Shown: positions 35,825 to 51,196 of the stretch, in pieces
Layout: each line of letters starts with the position of its first letter
Position numbering within the stretch: position 1 is the first letter of the stretch
Assembly (NCBI RefSeq): GCF_000422565.1
Contig: NZ_KE383875.1
Location: 343,545 to 407,544 of the forward strand
DNA: 64,000 bases
Direction: 5' to 3'
Source of the DNA: Desulfovibrio aminophilus DSM 12254
GTDB taxonomy: Bacteria; Desulfobacterota; Desulfovibrionia; Desulfovibrionales; Desulfovibrionaceae
Notes under the pieces: generated by a model
Databases searched by the model: none
Seen by the model: only the letters and a program-made list of their open reading frames with translations
What the model was told of the DNA's origin: nothing
Made by a program: the position numbers and the translations under genes

Positions 35825-36604
35825 TCAGCCCTGGAGGGCCTTGCGCACGCCGCCTTCCAGGAACAGGTAGTCCTTCTGGCCGCTGTCCTCCAGGTAGTAC
35901 TGAAGCCACTGGATCTGCTTGCCCACCGCATCGAAGATGAGCAGGGTCTTGCCCTTGAATGCTCCCTTCTGCAGCAGCGGAACCATGCGCTCGAAGGGAA
36001 TGCTCTTCACCCCCGCCACTCCGGGGAGCTGGTCCTTGCGCTGCATCGGGTCGCGAATGTCGATGACCTCGGCTCCCGAGGCGGCCTTGGCCTTGAAGGC
36101 GGCGAAATCCACCGTGTGGTCCTTGAGCTGCGCCTTGGTGATCAGCTTGGACGGGTCCGCGGGAGTCTTCCCGAGCAGGGTGGTGTCTTCGGCGTGCTCG
36201 GCGGCCCACTCCGGAATGCCCGCGTCGTAGACGAAGACATTGATGAAGCCGGCGTCCTTGGCCGCCCGGCAGGCTTCATACGACTTGGCGCAGGTCACTC
36301 CGTTGCAGTAGAAGGCCAGCTTCTTTCCGTCGGACTTGCCTCTGGCCTTCTCCAACTGGGCCAAAAAGTCCTTCTGGGAAATCGGGATGTGCTTGGACCC
36401 GTTGACGTGAATGACCTCGTATTCCTCGATCGAGCGGACGTCGACGACCACGGACTGGCCCGCCTTGCCCCAGGCGTACAGGTCGGCCGTTGTGACCGGA
36501 GTCAGCTCCTTGAACTCGGGCTTCTCGCGCAACGGGAATTCAGCGGCCCAGGCCGCGGCTGCGAAAAAAAACACCAAGAGGCACAGGACAATGCATTTTC
36601 TCAT
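35825..36604 (-). CDS. Periplasmic double-rhodanese-domain protein
   Basis: Exported protein of 259 residues with a Sec signal (CIVLCLLVFFFAAAAWAAEF). The first rhodanese domain (about 35-140) has a canonical loop starting at Cys100 (YCNGVTCAKS), fit to carry a persulfide. The second domain (about 150-255) keeps the fold (AEVIDIRDPMQRKDQLPG) but the loop reads FDAVGKQIQW with no Cys, so it is inactive, as in many tandem rhodaneses. Start 36604 is chosen because GGAGGT precedes it and the signal peptide begins there. The role is probably sulfane-sulfur transfer or sensing next to the chemoreceptor. Confidence 0.85.
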   Translation of the reverse strand: MRKCIVLCLLVFFFAAAAWAAEFPLREKPEFKELTPVTTADLYAWGKAGQSVVVDVRSIEEYEVIHVNGSKHIPISQKDFLAQLEKARGKSDGKKLAFYCNGVTCAKSYEACRAAKDAGFINVFVYDAGIPEWAAEHAEDTTLLGKTPADPSKLITKAQLKDHTVDFAAFKAKAASGAEVIDIRDPMQRKDQLPGVAGVKSIPFERMVPLLQKGAFKGKTLLIFDAVGKQIQWLQYYLEDSGQKDYLFLEGGVRKALQG

Positions 36605-36967
36605 CGTGACCTCCACATGGTTGTTGGCGCCTCCCCGCAACGGGGGGGCTCTGTCCCGTTCCTTCGCCTGAACGGCCCTGCCGCCCGACCCGCGAAATGA
36701 GACTCACGGCGGGAAGTCGCGGGTCGGCGGGCCCATTGCCGGGCCTTCCAAGAGACATGCCAACCGACCGGGAACGGCAACCAGCTTGAATCGTTTGATT
36801 CTATCCGCGAAAAATCCTGGCGGCCGCCAACCCGAGTTGGCAGGCTGCCAACCATTTCGTTTGCGGGCCGCGGCGCGGATCCGGTTCCCGAATGACGATG
36901 CGCGTGTCGGCGTCGGTGGGGTTCAGGCCCTCGCCTGAATTGGAAGTGGCGGAACGGAGGCGGAGAG
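36605..36967. other. Intergenic region upstream of the rhodanese operon
   Basis: No gene is seen in these 363 bases. The notable content is a set of TGCCAAC/GTTGGCA repeats at 36759-36852 (listed separately). No confident -35/-10 pair was found by eye, and no clear terminator follows the PEP-synthase-like gene that ends at 36968. Confidence 0.5.
36826..36852. repeat. Overlapping TGCCAAC/GTTGGCA inverted repeats, candidate operator
   Basis: GCCAAC (36826-36831), GTTGGCA (36836-36842) and TGCCAAC (36846-36852) form two overlapping dyads: GCCAAC-N4-GTTGGC and GTTGGCA-N3-TGCCAAC. A further TGCCAAC lies at 36759-36765. They sit 155-250 bases upstream of the rhodanese start, a place for an activator or repressor. 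Confidence 0.45.
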
Positions 36968-39556
36968 TCAGCCGGACAGCCCGGCGATGTCCTTTTCCAT
37001 CTTTTCGCGCAGCGGGCCGATCACGGCCTCGTTGCCCATGGCCATGTCCAGCTGGCGGGTGTGGATGACCACGTAGCCGAGCACGGCCACGCGATCCAGG
37101 GTGGCGGCCTTGTCCAGGCCTTCCAGACGGGCGAAGAGCGCATCCTCCCGCACCTCAACCCGGAAGTCCCGCTCCTCCAGGAGCCCGGCCACGAGCAGAG
37201 CGCGGCTCCGGCGACGCGGCAGGTCCGCGGCCCCGCCCTTGAACTGGAAGCTGACGTAATTTTCCTGGGGATCGTCCCCGGCCTGGGCCTCCACGGTGCA
37301 GAAGTGGAACCCGAAGCGGGACTGAAGATTGCAAAAATCCCTGGAGATCATGAAGTAATTTTTGACCGCGAAGGCGCTGGCCACGGTCGGCTCCAGCTCC
37401 GGGTTGCTGGCCGCGCCCGCCACCACGGCGAGGAAGCCCCGGGCGTCGGCCGCCGGGGGCCCGGCCCAGGGCACGGCGGTCATGCCTCGCCAGAGAGCGC
37501 GCATGGGCCCGGAGGCGATGCGCGTGATGTCCACGAAGCGGCCTTCCACCGGACCGTCGAAGCCGTCTTCAAGATCAATGACCCAATACTTGAGCTTGCT
37601 CTTGCCGCAGGTGAGCTGCTTGCTGAAGCCCTCCAGCCCCGCCTGTTCGCCCTCCAGGAACATCTCGCGCACGCTCTTTTCGTGGCAGAAACGGGTGATG
37701 TCGTGCAGGGTCCGGCAGTTCTCGGGCGTGAATTCCGGCGCGTCGGGGTCGATGAGGTTCAGGGGCACGACGTGGGCGCAGGCCCCGGCCAGGGCGGCAT
37801 GCACCGGGCTGCCCTCCATGAGGTTGCGCGGGGCCGGACGCAGGGCCAGCAACTCCTCGGCCCGGCCCGGATGCACGCGGCGGTTGTCCGCGTCCACCGT
37901 GACCTCGCCCGCGCCGTCCAGGGCCTCCAGCGCTCCCGCCACGCCGAGCAGAGCCGGAACGCCATACTCGCGGGCCACGTTGGCCAGGTGTCCGGCCGCG
38001 CTGCCCGCCTCGCAGACCACGGCCGCGGTCCGCGAGAGCAACGGGGCCCAGCGTGGATGGGCCTGGGCCGCCACGAGCACCGCGCCGTCCGGGAAGCGCA
38101 GGGCGTCGGCGTCCTTGCGCACCGCGAAGGCCGCGCCGCAGCCCACGCCCGGGGCCGCCGTGGTCCCGCCGGAGAGGAGCACGGGCAAGCCCGAGTCCGA
38201 AGGCGCGGCCTCCTCCCTCCGTCCGCTCTCGTGCAGGGGGCGGCTCTGCAGCAACACGATCCCGCCGTCCGGGGCCAAGGCGAACTCGATGTCCTGGGGC
38301 AGGCCGTAGAACTCCTCCATGTCCGCCGCCAGGGCCGCCACCCCCAGAACCTGGGCCTCGGTGAGCGAGGGCGCTCCGGCCTCTTCGGGCGGCACGTCCA
38401 CCAGGGCGATGCCCTGGGCCGGATCGCAGACGTACTTGGTGGGCTTGCGGGCCACCTCGGCGCGCGCCAGACGCATGGGCTCCCCGCGCTCGACCATGAA
38501 CACGTCCGGGTCGAAGCTGCCGTCCACCACGGCCTTGGGCAGACCATGCACGGCGTTGACCACCACGGCCCCGCCCCGGATGTCCAGGGGGTCGCGGCTG
38601 TAGGCCACGCCCCCGGCCTCGGCCCCGACCATGGCCATGCAGCCCACGCACATGGCCACGTCCTCGTCCGGGATGCCGCGCGTGAGCCGGTAGGTCATGG
38701 CCGTGAGGCCGTACTTGCTGGCCACGATCTCCTTGTACGTCTCCAAAATCTCGTCGCCGGGCACGTTCAGCTCGGACTGGTACTGTCCGGCGAAGGAGGC
38801 CCCCAGGGCGTCCTCGCCCACGGCGCTGCTGCGCAGGGCCACGCGCACCCCCTCCCCGGCCTGGACCTCCAAGCTCCGGTAAGCCTCCAAGATGGCCCGT
38901 TTCAGGTCGCCGGGCAGGGGCGCGGCCAGGATCAATCCCTGGAGCGCGGAGGACAGGGCGAACAGCTCGTCCAGACGGGAGGCGTCGGCGGTCTGGATGC
39001 GGCGGTCGATCTCGGCCTGGAGGTCGGAGGCCTCCATGAAGCGGCGGTAGCCGGAGGCCGTGACCGCGAAACCCGGAGGGATGCGCCGACCCAGGCGGCG
39101 GACGATCTCGCCCAGACTGGCCATCTTGCCGCCCACCTCGTCGGCCAGGTCCACCCCGGCCTCGGCCAGGGGCAGGACCAGGGGACCGGCGACGCCGCCG
39201 GAGTGGGGCTCCACGTGCGGGGCGATGGCGGCCTGGATCTCCTTGAGGCGCTCGAACAGGGCGTCGTAGCGCCCGTTGGCGAGAATCGAAAGCTGGCGGA
39301 CGATCTGAAAGACATTGGCGGCCGCACGGGCGCACTGGCCGCGCACGAAGGTCATGCCGAAGGGCTTCTGGCCGCGCAGGGCCTCTTCCATGGAGGCCAT
39401 GACGTCCAGGGCCGCGTTGTTGGCGGCCAGAAGACGACGGAAGCTCTCGCAACGGCCCCGGTACTCGGCGCGCAGGGCCTCCAGACGGGCGGGAGACGGC
39501 GGTTCGGGCCGCGAGCCGCGCAGGAGGTTGCCCAATGCCCGGAAAATGCCCGCCAT
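36968..39556 (-). CDS. PEP-synthase-like protein 1: ATP-grasp and phosphohistidine domains, no PEP/pyruvate barrel
   Basis: An 862-residue protein related to PEP synthase/pyruvate phosphate dikinase. Residues 1-125 are a helical domain not found in PpsA. Residues 128-440 are the PPDK N-terminal ATP-grasp (GGKMASLGEI, LRSSAVGEDALGASFAGQYQ, VGAEAGGVAYSRDP, DIEFALAPDGGIVLLQSRPL). Residues 455-560 are the swivelling phosphohistidine domain with His523 in AAGHLANVAREYGVPALLG. The last 290 residues do not look like the PEP/pyruvate TIM barrel and lack its catalytic Cys motif; they contain NYVSFQFKGGAAD at 766-778. It may phosphorylate an unknown partner. It is the last gene of the sigma-54 operon, 16 bases after the response regulator; a paralogue lies at 45751-48351. 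Confidence 0.82.
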   Translation of the reverse strand: MAGIFRALGNLLRGSRPEPPSPARLEALRAEYRGRCESFRRLLAANNAALDVMASMEEALRGQKPFGMTFVRGQCARAAANVFQIVRQLSILANGRYDALFERLKEIQAAIAPHVEPHSGGVAGPLVLPLAEAGVDLADEVGGKMASLGEIVRRLGRRIPPGFAVTASGYRRFMEASDLQAEIDRRIQTADASRLDELFALSSALQGLILAAPLPGDLKRAILEAYRSLEVQAGEGVRVALRSSAVGEDALGASFAGQYQSELNVPGDEILETYKEIVASKYGLTAMTYRLTRGIPDEDVAMCVGCMAMVGAEAGGVAYSRDPLDIRGGAVVVNAVHGLPKAVVDGSFDPDVFMVERGEPMRLARAEVARKPTKYVCDPAQGIALVDVPPEEAGAPSLTEAQVLGVAALAADMEEFYGLPQDIEFALAPDGGIVLLQSRPLHESGRREEAAPSDSGLPVLLSGGTTAAPGVGCGAAFAVRKDADALRFPDGAVLVAAQAHPRWAPLLSRTAAVVCEAGSAAGHLANVAREYGVPALLGVAGALEALDGAGEVTVDADNRRVHPGRAEELLALRPAPRNLMEGSPVHAALAGACAHVVPLNLIDPDAPEFTPENCRTLHDITRFCHEKSVREMFLEGEQAGLEGFSKQLTCGKSKLKYWVIDLEDGFDGPVEGRFVDITRIASGPMRALWRGMTAVPWAGPPAADARGFLAVVAGAASNPELEPTVASAFAVKNYFMISRDFCNLQSRFGFHFCTVEAQAGDDPQENYVSFQFKGGAADLPRRRSRALLVAGLLEERDFRVEVREDALFARLEGLDKAATLDRVAVLGYVVIHTRQLDMAMGNEAVIGPLREKMEKDIAGLSG

Positions 39557-39572
39557 GCCGGATCTCCGTCGG

Positions 39573-39944
39573 TCAGGTCAGCTTGCCGGATTTCTTCGCC
39601 GCGTCCTGGATCTTGAAGATGAGGTCGTTGATGGCCACGGGCTTGAGCAGATAATCGAAGGCCCCCAGCTCCATGCCCTCCACGGCCACCTCCATGTTGG
39701 CGTGGCCGGTGAGCAGGATCACCTCGATGTCCGGGGCCATTGCCTTGAGGCGGCGAAGGGTCTCGATGCCGCCCATACCCGGCATGCGCACATCCAGCAC
39801 CACCACGTCCACGGGGATCCTGGCCAGGGCCTCCAGGGCCGCCTCGCCGGTGGAGGCCGTGGTCACCTGGAAATTGCGCCGATCCAGGCGCTTGGTCATC
39901 AGCTCCAAAAACTCCGTCTCGTCGTCCACCAGAAGAATATGCAT
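39573..39944 (-). CDS. Single-domain response regulator (CheY-like receiver)
   Basis: Receiver domain of 123 residues, without an output domain. The acidic pocket (VDDE near 6-9), the phosphoacceptor Asp in VVVLDVRMPGMGG (near residue 51), the Thr in ILLTGHANME and Lys in LLKPVAI are all present, so it is probably phosphorylated. Start 39944 has GGAGGCGGAG upstream; a longer frame to 39998 adds no domain. No cognate histidine kinase is in the window. It lies 16 bases upstream of the PEP-synthase-like gene, its likely partner or regulator. Confidence 0.87.
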   Translation of the reverse strand: MHILLVDDETEFLELMTKRLDRRNFQVTTASTGEAALEALARIPVDVVVLDVRMPGMGGIETLRRLKAMAPDIEVILLTGHANMEVAVEGMELGAFDYLLKPVAINDLIFKIQDAAKKSGKLT

Positions 39945-40051
39945 GCGCTCCGCCTCCCGGGACGGGAAGGATTCCGTCTTTTCGGGCATCATAGACAAAA
40001 GGAGGGCGCGGCGTCCAGCCGCCGGAGGAAGGATCGGGGGATGGCGGGGCG

Positions 40052-40867
40052 TCAGCCCTGGCCGTTTCGCCGTCGCGCGAGCCCGGGGGCGTCCGAGCGG
40101 GCCACGAGAAATCCAGGCGCCAGGTCGATATTGAGGTCCACCTCGGCATGGGCCGCCTCGGGCCCCACCTTTTCCGCCACCAGATCGCCGACCACCTTGC
40201 CGGTTTTGTCCAGAAGCAGGAGCCGGTCGCCGTCATGCACGCCGTGGACGGAGCCCAGGCCGAAAATGATCTTCCAGGACTCCTTGTCGCGGGCCATCCG
40301 ATAGATGGGGCCCAGCCCGGCGGCCTGTTTGCGGCCGTCCTCGCGGTTGGAGAGCAGGAAGGAAACCCCGAGGCAACCGAGGCCCAGGGGCAGAAGAGAG
40401 AGAAAGACCCAGAAGGGTCGGATGCCCAGCCGCCGTTCGCAGAAGCTCGGCAGGTCCAGCCGCAGGGCCTCGGCGTCCGAGAACAGCCGCACCTGATAGA
40501 TGGTGGCGTCCTCGTCCGGGCTGCCGCCCTTGGGCATGACCCGCAGGAGGAACTCCCCCCCGGCCGCGCCCCGGCCCACGGTCAGTTCGCCGCGCCAGAT
40601 ACGGCCCTGCAGTTCCAGCAGCCGAACCTCGGCGTCATGGGTGCCGAGGCTGGTGTCCAGGTAGGTGGAGGCTTTTTCGGGATCGAAGTCGCGGATTTCC
40701 GCCAAGTCCTCGGGGGAGACGCTCAATTTGCCGCCGATGGCGATGGTCTGCCCGGCGGCGGCCCGGAAGAGCGTGTCCGAGCCGAAACCGCCGCGAAGGG
40801 TGTCGGCCGCGGCGAAGATGACCAGGAGAAAGATGCCGATGGCCAGCTTGTGGAAGACACTCCTCAC
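40052..40867 (-). CDS. Uncharacterised membrane protein of the sigma-54/TauE locus
   Basis: Protein of 271 residues with an N-terminal membrane helix (LAIGIFLLVIFAAADTL, about 7-24) and a second near 150-170 (FWVFLSLLPLGLGCLGVSFLL). The domain between them (about 25-148) is presumably periplasmic. The C-terminal 95 residues are cytoplasmic and contain the repeat-like GSVHGVHDGDRLLLLDKTGKVVGD, reminiscent of a small beta-barrel. I recognise no named family. It overlaps the small membrane-protein gene upstream by 4 bases and precedes the response regulator by 107 bases. Confidence 0.68.
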   Translation of the reverse strand: MRSVFHKLAIGIFLLVIFAAADTLRGGFGSDTLFRAAAGQTIAIGGKLSVSPEDLAEIRDFDPEKASTYLDTSLGTHDAEVRLLELQGRIWRGELTVGRGAAGGEFLLRVMPKGGSPDEDATIYQVRLFSDAEALRLDLPSFCERRLGIRPFWVFLSLLPLGLGCLGVSFLLSNREDGRKQAAGLGPIYRMARDKESWKIIFGLGSVHGVHDGDRLLLLDKTGKVVGDLVAEKVGPEAAHAEVDLNIDLAPGFLVARSDAPGLARRRNGQG

Positions 40868-41109
40868 GAAGCGGATCCGCCTTCCTCGTCGCCCGCCGGT
40901 TCACCGCGGCCGAAGCGCTTGATGAAGTGGCGGCAGACCAGGACAGTGACGATCGCCATGGGCACGTAGGTGCGCATGAAGATGGAGGTCAGGTGCAGCC
41001 GGTCGCCATGGGCTATGTAGAAGGTCAGGCAGAGCTCCAGAAGCAGGAGCACGTCCATGACCACGATGACGACCCGCTGGCGGGGGTTGATGCTTCCGAT
41101 GCTGCTCAT
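40864..41109 (-). CDS. Small two-helix membrane protein
   Basis: An 81-residue protein with helices near 13-33 (VVIVVMDVLLLLELCLTFYIA) and 45-62 (FMRTYVPMAIVTVLVC). The C-terminal tail is charged and acidic. There is no recognised family. The start at 41109 is preceded by AAGAGGAGAGC, and its stop overlaps the next gene by ATGA, so translation is coupled. Its conserved place between the periplasmic protein and the larger membrane protein suggests a structural part of the TauE-locus machinery. Confidence 0.66.
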   Translation of the reverse strand: MSSIGSINPRQRVVIVVMDVLLLLELCLTFYIAHGDRLHLTSIFMRTYVPMAIVTVLVCRHFIKRFGRGEPAGDEEGGSAS

Positions 41110-41197
41110 GCCTGCTCTCCTCTTGGGAGGGCCGGGCCGCCCGCCGGCGGTTGGAGGGGCGGGCGGCCCGGCAAGGGCTGGGGTTGGGGCGTGTTGA

Positions 41198-41536
41198 CTA
41201 CTTCTTCTTGCTCAGGTCCTGCTTGGTCACGTTCATGACCTTCACGGCGTGGTACTTGTCGTTGTCGGACGTGTAGGCGATGCGCAGGATGTCGCCCGGC
41301 TCGGGCGGGATGCCGATCTTGGCCTCGGACACGTCGAAGACCGTGACGGTGCCCGTGGGGGTGCCGTACTTGTTCTCCGGCGTGAAGTTGATGTCGTATT
41401 CCTCGATCTTGATGGTCTTGGCGGCCTTGTCGTTCTCGATGCACTTGCCTTGGGCCACCATGCCGGCCCAGGCGGCGGCGCACAGCAGAACCGTCAAGGC
41501 GAAGGCCGCTATGGAGGTCACAAACAGTCTCTTCAT
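41198..41536 (-). CDS. Small periplasmic protein of the TauE locus
   Basis: Exported protein of 112 residues with a Sec signal (MKRLFVTSIAAFALTVLLCAAAWA). The mature part is beta-rich: MVAQGKCIENDKAAKTIKIEEYDINFTPENKYGTPTG, with one Cys only. I recognise no named family. The last six residues are Lys/Ser-rich. It lies 25 bases after the TauE gene in the same operon, and 88 bases before the next one, so it could bind the anion that TauE moves. That link is inference. Confidence 0.7.
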   Translation of the reverse strand: MKRLFVTSIAAFALTVLLCAAAWAGMVAQGKCIENDKAAKTIKIEEYDINFTPENKYGTPTGTVTVFDVSEAKIGIPPEPGDILRIAYTSDNDKYHAVKVMNVTKQDLSKKK

Positions 41537-41561
41537 GGTGTCACTCCCGGTGCCTCGGCGC

Positions 41562-42599
41562 TCAGGCCGCGCTGTTATTGGCGTTTCTCTTTTCCCGCAG
41601 CTCGTTGGCCGCTCCGCTGATCATGACCCTCATGATCACGATGCAGATCACGGAGATGGCGCCGAGAATGATCACGGCCGAGGCGGCGTTGAACTTGAAC
41701 TGCTTGAGGATGATCGAAATCATGCAACAGAGCACGGCGCAGCCGAAGACGACGCGAATGCCGTAGCCCTTGGCGTACTTGGTGGCGATGGTGCCGATCT
41801 GGGCGCCCACGGCCGCGCCGGTGAGCATGACGAACACCGCGACCATCTCGATGCGGCCCTTCAGGGCATAGGTGAACGCGCCGTACAGGCCGGAGATCAT
41901 GACCTCGAAGAGGTCCGTGCCCACGGAGATGTGGGTCGGGCAGCCGATGAGGTAGATCAGGGCGGGCATGCGGAACAGGCCGCCGCCGATGCCCAGAAAG
42001 CCGGCCAGGATGCCGGTGACCAGGCTGACCAGGATGGGCAGCCAGAACGAGCAGGTGATGCCCGCGGCCTTGAAGTGCATCATGGGCGGGATGTTGATCT
42101 TATGCATGGTCTTGTACCAGGTGATGCCCTCGGTGCCGTGCTCGCCGGTGATGCCCTTCTTCTTCTTGTTCACGGCCTTGGCGTAGTCGTAGAAGACTAT
42201 CCAGGCGATGAGCAGGAGCAGAAACACGTAGGCCCAGCGGACCACGGAGCCGAGGTTGCCGAGACGCTCCAGGTGCATGACGATCTGGGCGCCGATTTCG
42301 ATGCCGATCATGGTGCCGGCCAGCATGACGAAGCCGAGCTTATAGTCCACGTTGCCGAACTTCGAGTGGCGCACCGTGGAGATCATGGACTTGCCCGCGA
42401 TGTGGGCCATGTCCGTTCCGATGGCGAAGGCCATGGGGAAACCCAGGATGTTCAGGCCCGGGGTCACCATCCAGGCGCCCGCCATGCCGAAGAAGCCGCC
42501 GATGACGCCCACGGCGAACCCGATGAGAACAAGTCCGGGCCAGAAGATGTTCACGCCCGCGATGGGCATGTGCATATACAACCATTCCATGCTGTGCAC
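41562..42599 (-). CDS. TauE/SafE-family membrane permease (sulfite/organosulfonate exporter type)
   Basis: Integral membrane protein of 345 residues with eight to nine helices in two repeats, each with the TauE pattern GVIGGFFGMAGAWMVTPGL (near residues 34-52) and AGFLGIGGGLFRMPALIYL (near 202-220). Family members move sulfite, sulfoacetate, thiosulfate or similar anions. It is second in the sigma-54 operon, between two small envelope proteins. In a sulfate reducer an anion of the sulfur cycle is the natural guess, but the direction and substrate are not shown by the sequence. Confidence 0.87.
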   Translation of the reverse strand: MHSMEWLYMHMPIAGVNIFWPGLVLIGFAVGVIGGFFGMAGAWMVTPGLNILGFPMAFAIGTDMAHIAGKSMISTVRHSKFGNVDYKLGFVMLAGTMIGIEIGAQIVMHLERLGNLGSVVRWAYVFLLLLIAWIVFYDYAKAVNKKKKGITGEHGTEGITWYKTMHKINIPPMMHFKAAGITCSFWLPILVSLVTGILAGFLGIGGGLFRMPALIYLIGCPTHISVGTDLFEVMISGLYGAFTYALKGRIEMVAVFVMLTGAAVGAQIGTIATKYAKGYGIRVVFGCAVLCCMISIILKQFKFNAASAVIILGAISVICIVIMRVMISGAANELREKRNANNSAA

Positions 42600-42621
42600 T
42601 CCTTGCGTTGGGCGTGTCGAA

Positions 42622-42921
42622 CTAGTGTTCCACGATGCTGCGCTTGGTCAGGTCCAAACCACAACGCGAGATTATGAAGTCCATCAGGAATCCCAGGAAA
42701 CCACCATAACCTGCGGTGAGGACCACCGCCCAGATGGCGTTAAGCAGCATATTCATGTTGTAGAGGTCCGCGAAGTAGTGCAGAACCACGTTCTTCACGA
42801 CCCGCGTGTCCGCCACGACCACGAGTTCGGAAGCGCCTCCACCGGCGGCCCAGACGAGCTGGGGCAGCACGGCCAGCAATGCCAGAATCAGGGGAAGAAC
42901 CTTCGCCGTTCTCGTCAGCAT
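42622..42921 (-). CDS. Small exported or membrane protein, first gene of the sigma-54 operon
   Basis: A 99-residue protein with a signal-like first helix (LPLILALLAVLPQLVWAAGGG), a short periplasmic part (ASELVVVADTRVVKNVVLHYFADLYNMN) and a second hydrophobic stretch (AIWAVVLTAGYGGFLGFLMDF, about 65-85). No family is recognised. Start 42921 is chosen for GGAGGG seven bases upstream; an upstream GTG-type extension to 42948 lacks a site. It lies 22 bases before TauE and about 125 bases after the predicted -24/-12 promoter start. Confidence 0.7.
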   Translation of the reverse strand: MLTRTAKVLPLILALLAVLPQLVWAAGGGASELVVVADTRVVKNVVLHYFADLYNMNMLLNAIWAVVLTAGYGGFLGFLMDFIISRCGLDLTKRSIVEH

Positions 42922-43221
42922 CACAAACCCTCCAGTGTTTCCATCCATTCCCTTTCAAACCAGTGCCGGGAGTCGTCCCGACGCTCCCTCCAGGCTCCGG
43001 GGAGGGAGAACCGGGAAAAAATCCCCGGGCGGTGGCCCTGCCTGAACTCGCAACAAAGCAACCTCCATGCCAAAGACAGGACCGCGCAACAGAACCCTAA
43101 CCGACTGAAATACAAAAAAATTTATTTATATTGACTTTGGCGAGGATTTGCGAGAATCGTGACCAGGCTTGTGAAAAATAACACGCTAGATCAAGGCCGG
43201 AACCTTCGCTCGGAGATCGCA
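42922..43221. other. Divergent control region of the sigma-54 locus
   Basis: About 300 bases between the TauE operon and the activator gene. It contains the -24/-12 element (43057-43072). Two hairpins fall in the minus-strand leader: CGGGA-GTCG-TCCCG at 42967-42980, and CTCCCTCC / GGAGGGAG at 42984-43008. A notably AT-rich stretch spans 43100-43135. AT-rich DNA upstream of a -24/-12 promoter suits IHF-type bending; activator sites are not identified. Confidence 0.6.
43057..43072 (-). promoter_or_regulatory. Sigma-54 (-24/-12) promoter of the TauE/PEP-synthase-like operon
   Basis: The minus strand reads TGGCATG-N4-TTGCT, one mismatch from the RpoN consensus TGGCACG-N4-TTGCW, with GG and GC dinucleotides at the required spacing. 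Transcription would start near 43046, giving a 125-base leader. The divergent neighbour encodes a sigma-54 activator. Confidence 0.8.
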
Positions 43222-45741
43222 ATGACCGGACCGCTCTTTGCCGGAACGTTACGTCAACTGTTCGCCAATCTGAGCATCCGGGCCAAACTTCTGGTCACGG
43301 TAATCCCTTCCGTGGTCCTCATTCTGGCCGTCACTGGCTACGCAACATATAGAATTTCAAGCAGTTTCATCGAAACAGCCCTGGAGCGGACCGTCCGGGT
43401 GCAAAACATGGCCACAGCCCACGCCTTGACCCGGCGCCTGGATCAATGTCGCACGGCTCTCCTGCTGTTCTCGCAAGAAAACCTCTCCCCGGGCACCATG
43501 CGGGAGTTTCTCGCAAAGGAAATGACCCTCGGCGCGCCGATGTTCCGTGAATTCGCCTTCCTGCCCGCGCACAACGGCCCGTCCATCTTCCTCCTGGTCC
43601 AGGACGGCCAGATTCTTCGGGTTCCCCCGGAGCGGCTGCGGGAAATCCGCCCCAATCCGATCCTCTCGGTGGAAAAAGCCGCCTCGCTGGAACACGGGGA
43701 GGTCTGGATCTCCCCCGTCGTGACGACGGAGTACCCGGCCATAGGCGAAGGAGACACGGCCAAGCGGACGGCCTCCCCGGTGATCCGCCTGGTGACGCCC
43801 TGCGACGCCGGGCCCGCGGGAAAGGGGCTGCTGGTCCTCTCCCTGGACGCCCGCGACTTGCGCAACCTGCTTTCACTCTACAACTCCTCAAAGTCGCCGC
43901 TCTGGGCCTTCACCCGCAGCGGGGAACTGCGCTACCACTTCCTGCTGGACACGGACGGCTGGATACTCCTCCAGTCCAGCGACCCGGACCGGGCCGACGA
44001 CGATCTGGCAACATATCTGGCAAGATCCGGATACGAGGGAACCCTGGGCCGGGCCCATCTGCCCATGGCTTTCCGCCCCAACGAAGTCTACCACCAGTTC
44101 TGGACCATGGTGGCTGATCTGCGCGACGGCAAGAGCGGCGGTTACATCGGGGAAAACGGTGGCGGAGATTTCTCGGGATCGCGCACCTTCTTCATGGCCT
44201 ATGCGCCGATCTACTTCACACCGGTCCAGGGCGAGCCCCCCCAGATATACGCCGGACTGGCCTTCCTCGACCACAGCAAGCTCACCCTGGCGGCGGGCTA
44301 CAAGCATCTGGACGTGATGTTCCTCATCACCCTGCTGACCATCGCGGCGGTGGCGGGCATGGTCTTCTTCCTGGCCAAGGCAGTGACCTCCCCGATCCTG
44401 CGCCTGGCCAAGGCCGTGGGCGAGGCCGACCTCACCGGCGGGATTCAGGAGATCGACCTGCCTTCCTCGGGCTACGAGACCAACCTCCTCAAGCGGGCGG
44501 TGAACAAGATGCTCGCGGCCCTGCGGCTGCAACTGGAGGAGATCCGCATCCGCGATCAGGCCATCCACAACCAGAGTCTGAACCAGCGAGTCATCGAGGA
44601 TGAGGACGCGCCGGAGCCTGGCGACGGCCAGAATCCCATCCCCGGCATCCTGGGCGCCGGGCCCAAGATCGAGGAACTGCGCTCGGACATCCTCAAGGCC
44701 GCGCGCGTGGATGTGGACGTGCTCATCATCGGCGAGACCGGCACGGGCAAGCAGCTGGCGGCCGAGGCCATCCACAACCTGAGCTCCCGAACCGACAAGC
44801 CGTTCATCTCCATCAACTGCGGAGCCCTGGACGAAAATCTGCTCCTGGACACCCTCTTCGGCCACGTCAAAGGGGCCTTCACCGAGGCCAAGACCGACCG
44901 CAAGGGCGCATTCCTGGAAGCCGACGGCGGCACCCTCTTCCTGGACGAGATCCAGTCCGCATCGCCCAAGGTCCAGCAGGCGCTGCTGCGCTCCGTGGCC
45001 ATGCGAAAGATCAAGCCGTTGGGCAGCGACCAGGAGCTGGACGTGGACGTGCGACTCGTGGCCGCCACCAACGCCGACCTCACCGAACTCATCGAAAGAA
45101 GGCTGTTCCGCGAGGATCTCTACTTCCGGCTCAAGGTCATCACCCTGCACACCCCGGCCCTGCGCGAACACAAGGAGAGCATCCCGATCCTGGCCCGGGC
45201 CTATCTGCGCCAGGCCGAGACCCTGGTGAACAAGCAGGGCCTGGCCCTCTCCCGGGGCGCCCTGGAGAAGATGAAGAATTACAACTGGCCGGGCAACATC
45301 CGCGAACTCATCAACTGCATCACCCGGGCGGCGGTCATGGCCGAGGGCGACCTGATCCTGGCCGAGGACGTGCGCCTGGAGGGCGACGGGCGCGGTCAGC
45401 CTTCCGGCGACGGCTCCTCGCGGCTCCTGGCCGCGCGGCCTCCGGCGCAGCCCGGCATGGCGGGCGAATCCCGGCCGGCGCCCGGCCCGGTCCCGCCTTC
45501 CAGGCCTCTGGAAAGCTACGTGCCCGAAGGGGTGCGCCTCAGTTCACGCCAGCTCAGGGTTCTGCCGCTCATCGTGACCCGGGGCGAGGTGACCCGCAAC
45601 GACTACCAGGAGCTGGCCGGAGGCGGCCTGCCGTCGCGCACGGCCATCTACGACCTTCAGGATCTGGTCAAAAAGGGCGTACTCCTGCGCGAGGGACGCG
45701 GCCCGGCCACGCGATACGTCCTGGCGCGGAGCCGGGAGTAG
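43222..45741 (+). CDS. Sigma-54-dependent activator with periplasmic Cache sensor, HAMP, AAA+ and winged-helix-like C-terminus
   Basis: Membrane-bound activator of 839 residues. A helix near 23-45 is followed by a large periplasmic dCache-like sensor (about 46-350), a helix near 370-390 and HAMP. The AAA+ domain starts near 475: Walker A GETGTGKQ at 504-511, GAFTEA at 551-556 in place of the usual GAFTGA, Walker B GGTLFLDEIQ near 575, and the arginine-finger region REDLYFRLKVI. The C-terminus lacks the usual Fis-type helix-turn-helix. It has instead RGEVTRNDYQELAGGGLPSR near 791-810, then TAIYDLQDLVKKGVLL, resembling a winged helix. The start at 43222 is chosen for GGAG upstream; a GTG at 43159 lacks a site. 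Confidence 0.87.
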   Translation: MTGPLFAGTLRQLFANLSIRAKLLVTVIPSVVLILAVTGYATYRISSSFIETALERTVRVQNMATAHALTRRLDQCRTALLLFSQENLSPGTMREFLAKEMTLGAPMFREFAFLPAHNGPSIFLLVQDGQILRVPPERLREIRPNPILSVEKAASLEHGEVWISPVVTTEYPAIGEGDTAKRTASPVIRLVTPCDAGPAGKGLLVLSLDARDLRNLLSLYNSSKSPLWAFTRSGELRYHFLLDTDGWILLQSSDPDRADDDLATYLARSGYEGTLGRAHLPMAFRPNEVYHQFWTMVADLRDGKSGGYIGENGGGDFSGSRTFFMAYAPIYFTPVQGEPPQIYAGLAFLDHSKLTLAAGYKHLDVMFLITLLTIAAVAGMVFFLAKAVTSPILRLAKAVGEADLTGGIQEIDLPSSGYETNLLKRAVNKMLAALRLQLEEIRIRDQAIHNQSLNQRVIEDEDAPEPGDGQNPIPGILGAGPKIEELRSDILKAARVDVDVLIIGETGTGKQLAAEAIHNLSSRTDKPFISINCGALDENLLLDTLFGHVKGAFTEAKTDRKGAFLEADGGTLFLDEIQSASPKVQQALLRSVAMRKIKPLGSDQELDVDVRLVAATNADLTELIERRLFREDLYFRLKVITLHTPALREHKESIPILARAYLRQAETLVNKQGLALSRGALEKMKNYNWPGNIRELINCITRAAVMAEGDLILAEDVRLEGDGRGQPSGDGSSRLLAARPPAQPGMAGESRPAPGPVPPSRPLESYVPEGVRLSSRQLRVLPLIVTRGEVTRNDYQELAGGGLPSRTAIYDLQDLVKKGVLLREGRGPATRYVLARSRE

Positions 45742-45750
45742 GGGGCGATC

Positions 45751-48351
45751 ATGCTGCGTCGACTCTTCAAGCGCAAGAAGCGGGATCCGCAACTGGCGGC
45801 GGGTCTGTTCAAGGCCAAGTACTCCCAGTTCAAGGCCCTGCTGGAATCCAACTCCGAGCTGCTCCAGCTGCTCACGGACCTGGAGCAGAAGCTGCGCGGG
45901 GACACCGTCTTCGGCATGGCCTACGTCCGGTCGCAGGCGTCGCGCATCGTCTTTCACGCCGTGCGCATGGCGAACAATTTCGACAAGCTCTCCTCCGGCC
46001 GTCTGCCCGCCCTGCGCGAGGTGGTCCGGCGCCTGAGCGGCGAGATCGCCTCCCTGGCCGAAATCAAACACCACGAAACGGCGGCGGCCTACATCCTGCC
46101 CTACCCGGCCATCTCCCGCGACCTGGTGGACAGCGTCGGCGGCAAGAACGCCAACCTGGGCGAGATCGCCGGCCGGGCCGGGCTACCCATCCCGGACGGC
46201 TTCGCCATCACCACGGCGGGCTACGAGGCTTTCGTACGTCACGGCGGCTTTCTGGACGAGGTCAAACGCCTGGAGCTGGAGGTGGACCCGGCCGACCCCG
46301 AAACCATGGTCACGGCCAGCGAGGGCATCCAGCGCCTGTTCCTCACGGCCGACGCTCCCGAAGACCTCTCCGAGGCCATACTCTCGGCCTACGCCGACCT
46401 CTGCGTCCGCCGCGGCGCGGGCCCCGAGGGTCTGCCCATCTCCATGCGCAGCAGCGCCATCGGCGAGGACTCCGAGCTGTCCTTCGCCGGGCAGTACCTG
46501 AGCGTGCTCAACGTGCGGCCCGACCGCATCCTGGACAACTACCGTCGCATCCTGGCCAGCCTGTTCACCCCCCGAGCCATCGCCTACCGGCTGCACAAGG
46601 GCATCCCGGACGAGGACATCGCCATGAGCGTCGCCTGCCTGGAGATGGTCGAGGCCAAGGCCAGCGGCGTCATGTACTCCCGCCACCCTTTCGATCTGCT
46701 GGACGAGAACGTGCTCATCAACGCGGTCTGGGGTCTTGGGCCCTACGCCGTGGACGGGGTCGTGACCCCGGACGTCTACCGATTCACCAGGGAGGACGAG
46801 CCCAGGCCGCTGGAGACGCGCGTGGCGGTCAAGGACCGCCGTCTGGTGGCCCGGCCCGGCGGCGTCCTGGAGGACGAGCGCGTCCCCGAGGAGGAGGCTT
46901 CCCGCCCCTGTCTGGACGAGGAGCAGGCCCGGCTCCTGGCCTCCTACGCCGTGCGCCTGGAGCGCCACTATCACTGCCCGCAGGACATCGAATGGGCCCT
47001 GAACACCGAGGGCAGGCTCGTGCTGCTCCAGGCCCGCCCCCTGCGCGCCGAGGCCGGAAGCGGCCCGCGTCCCACAACCGGACCGGTCCCCGGCCGCGAG
47101 ATCCTGCTCGAGGGCGGCGACGCGGCCTGCCCGGGCGTCGGCGCGGGCCCGGTGCGCCACGTCTGGCCGGACAGCGACCTGACGACCTTTCCCGAAGGCG
47201 CGGTGCTCGTGGCCGAGCATTCCTCGCCCAAGTACGCCCTGATCCTCCCGCGCATCCAGGCCGTGGTCACCAACGCGGGCAGCGTCACCGGCCACATGGC
47301 CTCCCTGGCCCGAGAATACGGCGTGCCCTCCCTGCTGAACACCCGTACGGCCACGGACGTGCTCAAGGAGGGCGAAATCGTCACCGTGGACGCCTTCTCC
47401 GGCCGGATCTACCGGGGCGAGGTGCCGGAGCTGCTCCGGCTGCGCCAGGACAAGGGCCGGTTCATGAAGGACACCCCGGTCTACGAAATCCTCCGCCGTC
47501 TGGGCGAACTGGTGACGCCGCTGTATCTCACCGACCCTCGTTCGCCGGATTTCAGGCCCGAGAAGTGCCGCACCGTGCATGACCTCATGCGCCTGATCCA
47601 CGAGCTGTCCTACGGCGAGATGTTCGCCATCAGCGACCTGGCCGCCGACCACGGCACCTTCGCGGTCAAGCTGACGGCTCCCCTGCCCCTGGACCTCTAC
47701 CTCATCGACCTGGGCGGGGGCCTGGCCGAAGCTCCGGGCTGGACCCGGCGCGTGCGGCCGGAGCAGGTCACCTCCGCGCCGTTCAAGGCGCTGCTGGCCG
47801 GCATGCTCCTGCCCGAGCTGCGCCACGCCGAGCCCAGGCCCGTGGACATGAAGGGCTTCTTCTCGGTCATGAGCCAGCAGATGCTGACCAACCCCGAGGG
47901 AGCCGAACGCTTCGGAGACAAGAGCTACGCGCTCATCTCGGACAAGTACCTGAATTTCAGCTCCCGGGTGGGCTACCACTACAGCGTGCTTGACGCCTAT
48001 TGCGGCCTGACCATGAACAAGAACTACATCAGCTTCCAGTTCAAGGGCGGGGCCGCCGACGACGTGCGCAAGAACCGCAGGGTGCGGTCCATCGCGCGCA
48101 TCCTGGAGGAGCACGACTTCAACGTGGAGGTGGCCGGGGACCGGGTGGTGGCGCGCTTCCAGAAGTACGACGCCGAGGCCACGGCCGCGCGCCTGGACAT
48201 GCTCGGCCGCCTGCTCATCTTCACCCGCCAGATGGACATGCTCATGATCGACGAGGGGAGCGTGCGGCGCGTCTCGCAATGTTTCCTGGACGGGGACTAC
48301 CACTACGAGGGCAATGGCGCGTCCGGCGCCCGCGACGGGGAGAACGGCTAG
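45751..48351 (+). CDS. PEP-synthase-like protein 2 (paralogue), downstream of the sigma-54 activator
   Basis: An 866-residue paralogue of the protein at 36968-39556 with the same plan. There is an N-terminal helical domain (1-125), an ATP-grasp (GGKNANLGEIAGRAGLPIPDGFAIT near 130; MRSSAIGEDSELSFAGQYLS near 232), and a phosphohistidine domain with His in SVTGHMASLAREYGVPSLLN near residue 516. The C-terminal 290-residue domain contains NYISFQFKGGAAD, shared with its paralogue, and lacks the PEP/pyruvate barrel. The gene lies 9 bases after the activator gene, so the two are co-transcribed. Since activator, response regulator and both paralogues form one locus, phosphotransfer signalling is likelier than gluconeogenic PEP synthesis. 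Confidence 0.82.
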   Translation: MLRRLFKRKKRDPQLAAGLFKAKYSQFKALLESNSELLQLLTDLEQKLRGDTVFGMAYVRSQASRIVFHAVRMANNFDKLSSGRLPALREVVRRLSGEIASLAEIKHHETAAAYILPYPAISRDLVDSVGGKNANLGEIAGRAGLPIPDGFAITTAGYEAFVRHGGFLDEVKRLELEVDPADPETMVTASEGIQRLFLTADAPEDLSEAILSAYADLCVRRGAGPEGLPISMRSSAIGEDSELSFAGQYLSVLNVRPDRILDNYRRILASLFTPRAIAYRLHKGIPDEDIAMSVACLEMVEAKASGVMYSRHPFDLLDENVLINAVWGLGPYAVDGVVTPDVYRFTREDEPRPLETRVAVKDRRLVARPGGVLEDERVPEEEASRPCLDEEQARLLASYAVRLERHYHCPQDIEWALNTEGRLVLLQARPLRAEAGSGPRPTTGPVPGREILLEGGDAACPGVGAGPVRHVWPDSDLTTFPEGAVLVAEHSSPKYALILPRIQAVVTNAGSVTGHMASLAREYGVPSLLNTRTATDVLKEGEIVTVDAFSGRIYRGEVPELLRLRQDKGRFMKDTPVYEILRRLGELVTPLYLTDPRSPDFRPEKCRTVHDLMRLIHELSYGEMFAISDLAADHGTFAVKLTAPLPLDLYLIDLGGGLAEAPGWTRRVRPEQVTSAPFKALLAGMLLPELRHAEPRPVDMKGFFSVMSQQMLTNPEGAERFGDKSYALISDKYLNFSSRVGYHYSVLDAYCGLTMNKNYISFQFKGGAADDVRKNRRVRSIARILEEHDFNVEVAGDRVVARFQKYDAEATAARLDMLGRLLIFTRQMDMLMIDEGSVRRVSQCFLDGDYHYEGNGASGARDGENG

Positions 48352-48767
48352 CGGCAGCCGAGAAAGGTCGCGTAGCCGCCGCTTCTGCCCAGGCCCGCCC
48401 GGCGGATGTCCGGGTCGAGCAGATTCTCGTCGTGGCCCGGCGAGTCCCGCCAACCCTCGAACTGCCGTTCCGGCGAGGGGTCCGGCAGGCGCAGGCCCAC
48501 GTTCTCCACGCAGTGGTTGGAGTCCGCGCGGGCGAAACGCTCGTCGAAGCCGTCGTGGGAGAGCTTTCCCCCCCGTTCCATGCCCCGGCTGTGGGACAGG
48601 GCCAGACGGTCCAGGACCGCGTCGCGGTGGAGCGCGGCCAGGCCGTGTTCCTGGCGGTAGGCGTTGATCCGCGCCAGCAGCTCGTCCTCGAAGCCTCCCG
48701 CCATGGACGGCGCGGTCGTCGCCAGGACCGCCAGAACGGCCGCCAGGACGGCCGCCCGACGGATCAT
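48348..48767 (-). CDS. CAP-domain (SCP/PR-1-like) secreted protein
   Basis: Exported protein of 139 residues: signal peptide (AAVLAAVLAVLATTAPSMAGG), then a CAP domain with LLARINAYRQEHGL, the metal-site histidine in ALSHSRGME, SHDGFDERF, ENVGL and WRDSPGHDENLLDP. Bacterial CAP proteins (YkwD type) are extracellular or periplasmic, function mostly unknown. It overlaps the heptosyltransferase-like gene start-to-stop by 4 bases and ends 4 bases inside the convergent PEP-synthase-like gene. Confidence 0.85.
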   Translation of the reverse strand: MIRRAAVLAAVLAVLATTAPSMAGGFEDELLARINAYRQEHGLAALHRDAVLDRLALSHSRGMERGGKLSHDGFDERFARADSNHCVENVGLRLPDPSPERQFEGWRDSPGHDENLLDPDIRRAGLGRSGGYATFLGCR

Positions 48768-49819
48768 CCCGGCAGCCCCAGCTTGGGCGCCAGTGCGGCC
48801 CAGACCTCTTCCGGCCGGATTTCGGTCATGCAGCGATGGTGCCCCTCGGGGCAGCGCTTGTGGCCATGCAACCCGCAGGGACGGCAGGAAAGGTCGCGCT
48901 CCAGCACCGTGGAGCCCTCCCCGCGCGGAAAGAAGCCCAGAGACCGCGTGGTGGGTCCGAAGAGGGCCGCCAGGGGCACGTCCTGGACCCAGGCCAGGTG
49001 CATGGGGCCGGAATCGTTGGTCAGATAGGCCGAGAGCCGTCCGATGACCGCCGCCAGCTCGGGCAGGGAGAGCGCTCCGGCAAGACTCGCGGTGCGCCGC
49101 CGGGCCGGATCACCGGCCCCGTCCAGCACGGCCCGGGCCACCCCCTCCTCGCCGGGTCCGGCCAGGAGCAGGATGCGCGCCCCGGCCGAGGCGGCCAGGT
49201 CGAGCACGCGGCTGAAATGTCCCACGGGCCAGCACTTGGTGGGCCAGGTGGAGCCGGGATGCACGCCGAGCACCGGGCCCTCGCCCTCGGGCAGGCCCGT
49301 CTCCCATATGGCGCGGGCCCGCTCCAGGGCGAGGGCGGGCAGGACCAGCCGGGCCGCTGGGGCCTCCAGGCCGACGCCCAAGGGGCCCAGCAGGGCCATG
49401 AGCCGCTCCACCTCCGCCAGTTCGTCGAAGCGGCGGCTCACCGTCTCGGTGTAGGCCAGCCGGTTGAACCAGGGGGCGTCGTAGCCGATGCGTCGGGGGA
49501 TTCCCGAGGAGGCGGCCACCAGGGCGCTGCGGGCGCTGGAGTGCGCCGAGAGCCAGAGGTCGAAGCCCTGGGACTTCAGGTCGCGACCGAACCTCCAGGC
49601 GGCGGCCAGGCCCTTCTCGGAGCCGCGCTTGTCGAAGCCGTGGATTCCGGTCAGCTCGGGCTGGGCCGCGAACAGGCCCTCCAGGCCGGCCCGGACGAAG
49701 AGATGAATGGCGGCCTCGGGAAAACGGGCGCGCAAGGCGGCGATGAGCGGCAGGGTGAGCACCGCGTCGCCCAGAAAAGCGGTCTGCCAGACCCCGATCT
49801 TGCGCGGATCGGCGATCAC
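48764..49819 (-). CDS. Glycosyltransferase family 9 (ADP-heptose:LPS heptosyltransferase II-like)
   Basis: Cytoplasmic, membrane-associated GT-B enzyme of 351 residues that adds heptose to the LPS inner core. Motifs: IGVWQTAFLGDAVLTLPL at the N-terminus, GVHPGSTWPTKCWP near 185, LTNDSGPMHLAWV near 258 and LFGPT. The C-terminus is rich in Cys (CRPCGLHGHKRCPEGHHRC), which WaaF proteins often show. The GTG at 49819 is chosen because GGGAG precedes it and homology begins there; a longer open frame to 50026 has no domain content. It may act as WaaF, but other GT9 specificities are possible. Confidence 0.82.
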   Translation of the reverse strand: MIADPRKIGVWQTAFLGDAVLTLPLIAALRARFPEAAIHLFVRAGLEGLFAAQPELTGIHGFDKRGSEKGLAAAWRFGRDLKSQGFDLWLSAHSSARSALVAASSGIPRRIGYDAPWFNRLAYTETVSRRFDELAEVERLMALLGPLGVGLEAPAARLVLPALALERARAIWETGLPEGEGPVLGVHPGSTWPTKCWPVGHFSRVLDLAASAGARILLLAGPGEEGVARAVLDGAGDPARRRTASLAGALSLPELAAVIGRLSAYLTNDSGPMHLAWVQDVPLAALFGPTTRSLGFFPRGEGSTVLERDLSCRPCGLHGHKRCPEGHHRCMTEIRPEEVWAALAPKLGLPG

Positions 49820-49870
49820 GGCTTGATCTCCCGGGCCGTCGCCGGTATTCCAGGAACAGCGGAGGAACCC

Positions 49871-51128: not shown

Positions 51129-51196
51129 GTATCGCACTCCTCGTTGTCAGCCGTTAGGGGCGGCGTCCTCGCGACCGGGGCGCCTCCGTGCCTGGT

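What the first reader, a model, noticed from the sequence alone, without database searches (positions are those of the whole stretch)
36968..48351. Divergent sigma-54 island: TauE permease, small envelope proteins, response regulator and two PEP-synthase-like paralogues
A seven-gene operon behind a near-consensus -24/-12 promoter faces a two-gene operon with the sigma-54 activator and a second PEP-synthase-like protein. The mix of an anion permease, several unknown envelope proteins, a lone receiver domain and two ATP-dependent phosphohistidine proteins is not a pathway I can name. I infer a sensed anion transport or detoxification system in which the paralogues transfer phosphate to a partner, perhaps the receiver or a membrane component.
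Basis: partly seen in the sequence, partly recalled or inferred. Interest (0 to 1): 0.8.

Follow-up and report, generated by a model that had tools for sequence, protein, structure and literature searches.

The report
Sulfate-reducer anion-transport module with PEP-synthase-like regulators
A gene cluster found in many sulfate-reducing bacteria joins a membrane permease, likely for sulfur anions, to two PEP-synthase look-alikes that lack the pyruvate-binding part and are predicted to work as phosphate-passing regulators, which would be a new kind of control over anion transport in sulfur respiration.

Summary
In detail: seven tightly spaced minus-strand genes behind a TGGCATG-N4-TTGCT promoter face an activator/PEP-synthase-like pair. 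The core (DVU0150-family protein, TSUP/TauE permease) occurs in 19 families of the phylum sample, usually with a PEP-synthase-like gene and often with receivers, kinases and the activator, whose sensor is a predicted double-Cache domain. D. vulgaris DVU0151 and its target DVU0150-0146 are the published counterpart. Both PEP-synthase-like proteins keep ATP-grasp and phosphohistidine domains but lack the pyruvate barrel; a ~300-residue C-terminal domain, without Pfam family or close PDB match, follows instead. Its H/D/H/H residues are kept in 144 of 144 relatives, even in three that lost the phosphohistidine. Of 98 phylum genomes with this protein 94 have dsrA; the other four are 62-80% complete. 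Outside the module it again sits by receivers/kinases (29 of 40 hand-picked loci; 1 of 20 arbitrary regions) and TSUP/DASS transporters (18 of 40; 0 of 20). I infer a sensed sulfur-anion transport module with ATP-charged phosphohistidine regulators. Substrate and phosphotransfer are untested; two Planctomycetota MAGs carry it without dsrA or aprA.

The parts
42622..42948 (-). DVU0150-family small membrane protein, 108 aa, first gene of the operon
   Evidence: NF040783 111.2 bits, cut-off 70; 2 hydrophobic segments
41562..42599 (-). TSUP/TauE permease, 345 aa
   Evidence: PF01925 146.4 bits; a TSUP gene follows the DVU0150-family gene in all 60 regions fetched by that family
41198..41536 (-). 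small exported protein, 112 aa, DUF4881-like C-terminus
   Evidence: PF16222 25.4 bits, below cut-off 27; a longer protein in the same place in L065 reaches 255.6 bits
40864..41109 (-). two-TM small membrane protein, 81 aa
   Evidence: no family over cut-off; hydropathy
40052..40867 (-). protein with two hydrophobic segments, 271 aa
   Evidence: no family; relatives in 42 of 60 regions
39573..39998 (-). single-domain receiver, 141 aa, no output domain; acidic pocket, phospho-acceptor D, T and K present
   Evidence: PF00072 108 bits; residues
36968..39556 (-). PEP-synthase-like protein 1, 862 aa
   Evidence: PF01326 293.1 and PF00391 59.2 bits, no PF02896
38201..39142 (-). ATP-grasp (PPDK_N) domain of protein 1
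37883..38095 (-). phosphohistidine swivel domain of protein 1 (His at about 37988-37990)
36971..37855 (-). C-terminal domain of protein 1, no Pfam match
43057..43072 (-). -24/-12 (sigma-54) promoter TGGCATGGAGGTTGCT of the seven-gene operon
43159..45741 (+). membrane-bound sigma-54 activator, 860 aa
   Evidence: PF00158 202.8 bits; TM at residues 44-62 and 386-404
43345..44313 (+). periplasmic double-Cache sensor of the activator (predicted)
   Evidence: AlphaFold2 mean pLDDT 81.0; Foldseek to TlpC/TlpA dCache domains, E about 1e-9
44872..44889 (+). GAFTEA sigma-54 contact loop
   Evidence: E or D at the fifth position in 63 of 63 relatives whose loop could be aligned (some genomes counted twice)
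45751..48351 (+). PEP-synthase-like protein 2, 866 aa
   Evidence: PF01326 310.9 and PF00391 67.9 bits, no PF02896; aligns to solved PEP synthases up to residue 567
46129..47049 (+). ATP-grasp (PPDK_N) domain of protein 2
47188..47403 (+). phosphohistidine swivel domain of protein 2 (His515 at 47293-47295)
47428..48348 (+). C-terminal domain of protein 2 with H610, D611, H617, H743 kept in all relatives examined; no Pfam family, no close fold found in the PDB

Best explanation
This is a conserved, likely anion-transport gene module, found mostly in dsrA-bearing bacteria, in which a membrane activator with a predicted double-Cache sensor likely switches on a TSUP permease, probably for a sulfur oxyanion, and two PEP-synthase-like proteins without the pyruvate barrel are predicted to act as ATP-charged phosphohistidine regulators of that transport. 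Proposed course: (1) a small molecule outside the membrane would bind the Cache domain (inferred). (2) The activator would open the -24/-12 promoter of the seven-gene operon (site and its conservation shown; activation inferred, and predicted in print for D. vulgaris). (3) The TSUP permease with its small partners would move the anion (family shown; substrate and direction inferred). (4) Each PEP-synthase-like protein would take phosphate from ATP onto its swivel histidine (machinery shown; reaction inferred) and pass it to a target held by the C-terminal domain (inferred). For protein 1 that target is most likely the lone receiver encoded 16 bp upstream; for protein 2, encoded 9 bp behind the activator, it would be the activator or another receiver. 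Free receivers would then tune permease activity or sensor kinases (inferred).
For: Module conserved: a TSUP gene follows the DVU0150-family gene in 60 of 60 regions fetched by that family; among loci with at least 6 kb on both sides of the permease, a PEP-synthase-like gene in 35 of 45 and 29 of 40, receiver or kinase in 30 of 45 and 25 of 40. Activator followed directly by a PEP-synthase-like gene in 12 of 23 and 19 of 31, nine more lacking room. All 56 genomes over the NF040783 cut-off also hold the PEP-synthase-like family at E 1e-100 or better, 55 at 1e-200. Sulfur link: 94 of 98 genomes with that protein (E 1e-200 or better) have dsrA over cut-off, the other four being 62-80% complete; by family code 36 of 50 dsrA families and 0 of about 43 others (hand tally, tested). 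Outside the module: receiver or kinase in 29 of 40 hand-picked loci, TSUP or DASS in 18 of 40, against 1 of 20 and 0 of 20 arbitrary regions. ATP-site residues and His kept in 141-143 of 144, C-terminal H/D/H/H in 144 of 144. Partners follow the family tree: 23 label changes, 72.9 when shuffled. All 24 receivers directly upstream have the four key residues.
Against: No phosphotransfer, transport or expression data. 65 of the 146 proteins in the tree have none of the tested partners directly upstream. Protein 2 has no receiver next to it in the window, and no sensor kinase is among the nine genes. Two Planctomycetota MAGs carry the module without dsrA or aprA; a third Planctomycetota genome of 199 has the protein and was not tested for dsrA. 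One genome of the Sumerlaeota set has the protein without dsrA and one dsrA without the protein. A Sterolibacterium MAG has permease and dsrA but no match to the C-terminal profile. 49 of 143 dsrA genomes lack the protein at E 1e-200. The associations are not corrected on a species tree. 11 of 23 and 12 of 31 activators lack the PEP-synthase-like gene directly downstream, and the genome's second DVU0150 module has none nearby.
Confidence: 0.4

Rival explanations
1. The PEP-synthase-like proteins are metabolic enzymes, not regulators: they phosphorylate a small molecule moved by the permease, as rifampin phosphotransferase or phenylphosphate synthase do (comparison recalled), with the C-terminal domain as the acceptor site.
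For: Swivel His in 141 of 144 and a strictly conserved H/D/R/H/H set in the C-terminal domain look like an active site; relatives Rph and PigC are among the family hits for the ATP part.
Against: Three copies lost ATP-site residues and His yet keep the C-terminal residues and sit with a kinase, a receiver and an intact copy; repeated association with receivers, kinases and an activator; no operon gene of known metabolism, though four are of unknown function.
Confidence: 0.3
2. The TSUP permease moves a non-sulfur anion such as lactate, pyruvate or another carboxylate, and the dsrA association only reflects shared lifestyle and descent.
For: Kazakov et al. note that two permeases of another family (PSE) are co-regulated with lactate genes and that TSUP and PSE specificities are unknown (PMC4641369, passage); DASS neighbours can carry dicarboxylates (PMC5840216, passage); two Planctomycetota MAGs hold the module without dsrA or aprA.
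Against: The PEP-synthase-like protein tracks dsrA across 36 families, and module-bearing Sumerlaeota, Nitrospinota and Sterolibacterium MAGs have dsrA; no gene of carboxylate use is in the operon.
Confidence: 0.25
3. The paralogues are ordinary PEP synthases that make PEP from pyruvate.
For: Relatives are annotated so in public sources; about 450 residues align to solved PEP synthases.
Against: No PF02896 barrel; far below the PEP-synthase cut-off (293.8 and 322.1 bits against 739.75); the genome has the barrel in two other proteins.
Confidence: 0.03

Closest known systems
DVU0151 regulon of Desulfovibrio vulgaris (DVU0150-DVU0146; PMC4641369)
   Same: Activator with a long N-terminal region and no annotated Fis-type HTH, GAFSEA loop, divergent sigma-54 promoter, target operon beginning with DVU0150 and filed under transmembrane transport (passages seen)
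   Different: The paper calls the sensor unknown and its main text has no hit for phosphoenolpyruvate or PEP synthase; here the sensor is assigned to dCache, and the PEP-synthase-like pair, receiver and cross-phylum spread are added. D. vulgaris sequences were not compared here
PEP synthase / pyruvate phosphate dikinase
   Same: PPDK_N ATP-grasp domain and swivel phosphohistidine domain in the same order
   Different: Extra ~110-residue N-terminal part; pyruvate/PEP barrel absent, another C-terminal domain in its place
Rifampin phosphotransferase (Rph)
   Same: Shares the ATP-grasp and swivel domains with a different acceptor part
   Different: Scores 212.8 and 220.1 bits against cut-off 999; acceptor part lies after, not between, the two domains (Rph order recalled)
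TSUP/TauE-SafE permeases
   Same: PF01925 over cut-off
   Different: Distinct, highly conserved subgroup tied to a DVU0150-family partner. In D. vulgaris the TSUP of clade B of Marietou et al. is DVU2958 (PMC5840216, passage), so this subgroup is probably not clade B (inference)
Bacterial two-component phosphorelays
   Same: Lone receivers and dCache histidine kinases recur beside the genes
   Different: No kinase among the nine genes; proposed donor is a PEP-synthase-like protein

Membership tests
PEP synthase (TIGR01418) | PPDK_N ATP-grasp domain | tested here: met
   PF01326 293.1 and 310.9 bits, cut-off 27
PEP synthase (TIGR01418) | Swivel domain with phosphohistidine | tested here: met
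   PF00391 59.2 and 67.9 bits; His aligned with solved PEP synthases and kept in 141 of 144 relatives
PEP synthase (TIGR01418) | PEP/pyruvate-binding barrel PF02896 | tested here: not met
   No match in either protein; whole-genome search finds it at two other places only
PEP synthase (TIGR01418) | Curated whole-protein cut-off 739.75 bits | tested here: not met
   293.8 and 322.1 bits
Rifampin phosphotransferase (NF041857) | Curated cut-off 999 bits | tested here: not met
   212.8 and 220.1 bits
TSUP/TauE permease | PF01925 over cut-off, about eight hydrophobic segments | tested here: met
   146.4 bits; eight segments, two of them overlapping
TSUP/TauE permease | Transport of sulfite, sulfate or sulfonate | not testable with these tools
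   Needs transport assay; Marietou et al. say functions of TSUP proteins in these organisms cannot yet be predicted (PMC5840216, section 19 read)
DVU0150 family (NF040783) | Curated cut-off 70 bits | tested here: met
   111.2 bits
Sigma-54 enhancer-binding protein | Sigma-54 AAA+ domain | tested here: met
   PF00158 202.8 bits
Sigma-54 enhancer-binding protein | Exact GAFTGA loop | tested here: not met
   GAFTEA; acidic fifth residue in 63 of 63 relatives. Variants such as GAFSEA are judged functional in PMC4641369 (passage), and NorR G266D still opens promoters (PMC2941729, passages)
Sigma-54 enhancer-binding protein | Fis-type HTH | tested here: not met
   No PF02954 match; DVU0151 is described as the same exception, with a winged-helix candidate (passage)
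dCache sensor | Double-Cache fold between two TM helices | tested here: met
   On a predicted model only; Foldseek prob 1.00 to TlpC and TlpA dCache domains; Pfam dCache_1 not matched by sequence
DVU0151/DVU0150 regulon | Orthology of the individual genes with D. vulgaris | tested here: inconclusive
   Same family and arrangement; D. vulgaris sequences were not compared. The genome has a second DVU0150 module (C9, locus L072), so which copy is the orthologue is open
His-Asp phosphorelay | Competent receiver | tested here: met
   D, D, T, K present in the window's receiver and in 24 of 24 receivers directly upstream of such genes
His-Asp phosphorelay | Phosphate transfer from the PEP-synthase-like protein to the receiver | not testable with these tools
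   Needs phosphotransfer assay

The most novel reading that the evidence does not exclude
The proteins are a new class of signalling phosphotransferase of sulfate reducers. The ATP-grasp/swivel pair would read the ATP : AMP + pyrophosphate balance, which sulfate activation itself shifts, store it as phosphohistidine, and hand it through the new C-terminal domain to lone receivers and the membrane activator, so that sulfur-anion transport follows the energy cost of sulfate activation.
Probability: 0.15. Interest if true: 0.87.

Novelty: new variant of a known kind. Interest (0 to 1): 0.62.

Why it matters
A protein commonly annotated as pyruvate,water dikinase is, in 297 genomes of the window's phylum, almost confined to dsrA-bearing bacteria and carries, in place of the pyruvate site, a C-terminal domain that no Pfam family covers. 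If it is a regulator, sulfate reducers have a phosphotransfer route outside histidine kinases that is tied to anion transport, whose substrates and control in these organisms are a standing question. At the least, PEP-synthase counts in their metabolic models need correcting, and the unknown sensor of DVU0151 gains a testable fold.

Tried and rejected

Limits of the counts: loci L042-L101 and L102-L181 share 14 loci by identical permease C-termini, so paired counts, the 138 and the 63 hold some genomes twice. The 40 loci outside the module were picked by hand from the listed matches, 20 from genomes without NF040783 and 20 copies elsewhere in module-bearing genomes; some are cut by contig ends. 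The 20 control regions are at round-number positions that I chose on four chromosomes; one holds receivers and kinases, one more an NtrC-type regulator (not counted as lone receiver), one a 38-bit TSUP match below my 80-bit threshold, one a universal stress protein. The family-level table was tallied by hand; family codes up to f93 were seen, more may exist. The genome lists were typed from the tables. Only proteins of 780-1000 aa scoring 450 bits or more entered. Four of the ten genomes were chosen as expected positives. (0 of 200) had no positive genome within it; the same profile does match.
Full report
What is there. Nine genes lie between 36968 and 48351. On the minus strand, seven genes with gaps of 22, 25, 88, -4, 53 and 16 bp encode a DVU0150-family small protein (NF040783), a TSUP/TauE permease, a 112-residue protein with a hydrophobic N-terminus, an 81-residue two-TM protein, a 271-residue protein with two hydrophobic segments, a single receiver and an 862-residue PEP-synthase-like protein. 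On the plus strand a sigma-54 activator and an 866-residue PEP-synthase-like protein are 9 bp apart. The promoter TGGCATGGAGGTTGCT (43072-43057) scores 23 of 24 on my scale; for 52 of 138 related DVU0150-family genes the best nearby site scores 22 or more, against about 2.2% of 414 stretches from the same loci. Inside the window alone such hits are not above chance.

Conservation. In 297 genomes drawn from the phylum, 60 match NF040783 and 56, from 19 family codes (counted by hand in the table), pass its cut-off. In all 60 regions fetched around such hits (a few from genomes with two hits, a few sub-cut-off) a TSUP gene follows. A permease-profile scan of named genomes found 385 relatives and kept 80 loci, from Desulfovibrio, Pseudodesulfovibrio, Desulfacinum, Desulforhabdus, Desulfosarcina, Desulfomonile and others, and from MAGs labelled Planctomycetota or Phycisphaera, Sumerlaeota, Nitrospinota and Sterolibacterium. 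Among loci with at least 6 kb on both sides (45 and 40), a PEP-synthase-like gene is near in 35 and 29, the 271-residue protein in 32 and 27, the membrane activator in 21 and 25, and a receiver or kinase in 30 and 25. The two locus sets share 14 loci. The closest relative, L103 (Desulfovibrio sp. UBA4079), has the same nine genes in the same order; Pseudodesulfovibrio pelocollis (L116) has them too, with a universal stress protein gene between the divergent operons and kinase and receiver genes beyond.

The PEP-synthase-like family. Both proteins keep PPDK_N and the swivel domain, and protein 2 aligns with solved PEP synthases up to about residue 567. Neither has the PF02896 barrel; the genome has it at two other places. 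The remaining ~300 residues of protein 2 match no Pfam family and were modelled with mean pLDDT 85.6 without a close PDB match. In 144 full-length relatives the phosphohistidine is kept in 141, and H610, D611, H617 and H743 in 144. The three without the histidine, all from one genus, have also lost K132, D412, E414 and Q427 (one of them R233 too) and lie beside a kinase, a receiver and an intact copy. The C-terminal domain therefore has a role of its own (inference).

Partners. The window's genome has five full-length members. In 40 hand-picked loci outside the module, 26 have a lone receiver, 29 a receiver or kinase, 15 a TSUP gene and 18 a TSUP or DASS gene; in 20 arbitrary regions the figures are 1, 1, 0 and 0 (thresholds and near misses in Tried and rejected). 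On a tree of 146 proteins the direct upstream partner (activator 30, receiver 24, a 239-residue protein 14, small membrane proteins 13, none of these 65) needs 23 changes against 72.9 when shuffled. Window protein 1 falls in a starred group of 7 that are all receiver-linked; window protein 2 in a starred group of 3 activator-linked proteins, the next starred group of 60 mixing activator-linked (26) with none (31) and others. All 24 receivers directly upstream of such genes keep the four key residues.

Link to sulfur respiration. dsrA passes its cut-off in 143 of 297 genomes. Of 98 genomes with the PEP-synthase-like protein at E 1e-200 or better, 94 have dsrA; the other four are 62-80% complete; 49 dsrA genomes lack it. 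At the looser E 1e-100, 115 of 124 have dsrA, but canonical PEP synthases may enter there. By family code, 36 of 50 dsrA families and none of about 43 others hold it (hand tally, tested). Of ten module-bearing genomes checked, eight have dsrA: four Thermodesulfobacteriota chosen as expected positives, two Sumerlaeota, one Nitrospinota and one Sterolibacterium MAG. The two Planctomycetota MAGs lack dsrA and aprA. Of 40 genomes of the Sumerlaeota set three hold the protein and three dsrA, two of them shared. Of 199 Planctomycetota genomes three hold it, the third untested for dsrA. None of 200 genomes of the Sterolibacterium MAG's phylum matched, the MAG itself included, although it has permease and dsrA.

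The activator. Residues 31-471 were modelled (mean pLDDT 81.0) and match double-Cache chemoreceptor domains with Foldseek E about 1e-9, which gives a predicted fold to the sensor that PMC4641369 left unknown (passage). The GAFTGA loop carries E or D at its fifth position in 63 of 63 relatives. In NorR, G266D at that position escapes repression by the sensor domain and still opens promoters (PMC2941729, abstract and passages), so an acidic residue there need not block activation; it suggests that this family is not held off by masking of that loop (inference).

Reading. Shown: gene order, conservation, promoter, domain make-up, residue conservation, partner statistics, dsrA association. Inferred: that the permease carries a sulfur oxyanion, that the activator senses a periplasmic ligand, and that the PEP-synthase-like proteins charge a histidine from ATP and pass phosphate to a receiver, the activator or the transport machinery. 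The bolder reading, that they report the ATP : AMP + pyrophosphate balance set by sulfate activation, rests on the reversible chemistry of PEP synthase and PPDK (recalled) and on the dsrA association; nothing here tests it.

Known background. The D. vulgaris activator DVU0151 and its predicted target DVU0150-DVU0146 are in print as a transmembrane-transport regulon (PMC4641369, passages). Marietou et al. find functions of TSUP proteins in sulfate reducers not predictable at present (PMC5840216, section 19 read). In the listings of my searches no paper describes the PEP-synthase-like family, its C-terminal domain or its partners.

Noticed in passing
window 35825-36640 (-) and 33872-35743 (-): A rhodanese-domain protein with a signal-like N-terminus and a HAMP/MCP chemoreceptor follow the operon on the same strand after a 327-bp gap with one weak terminator-like site; a sulfur-transfer protein beside a likely sulfur-anion module.
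   Followed up: partly
L072 (G000 C9:18500-38400): The same genome holds a second DVU0150-TSUP module with its own membrane activator but no PEP-synthase-like gene within the fetched region.
   Followed up: partly
L184-L187, L190-L193, L195, L211, L212, L223: A second recurring set: a longer TSUP (about 440 aa), a 239-residue protein without Pfam family and a PEP-synthase-like gene, mostly with lone receivers.
   Followed up: partly
L220:977-3595, L221:1063-3750, L222:10721-13351: PEP-synthase-like copies with Arg in place of the phosphohistidine and lost ATP-site residues, next to a kinase, a receiver and an intact copy.
   Followed up: partly
L148, L155, L161, L198, L202, L214: DASS (sodium:sulfate symporter type) genes next to CBS-domain genes near PEP-synthase-like or DVU0150-TSUP genes.
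   Followed up: no
related loci, e.g. L116, L130, L154: A universal stress protein gene is near the permease in 19 of 45 and 9 of 40 loci, in these examples just before the DVU0150-family gene.
   Followed up: no
window 48348-48767, 48764-50026, 50148-51137: Convergent neighbours: CAP-family protein, family-9 glycosyltransferase and GlpX-type fructose-1,6-bisphosphatase.
   Followed up: no
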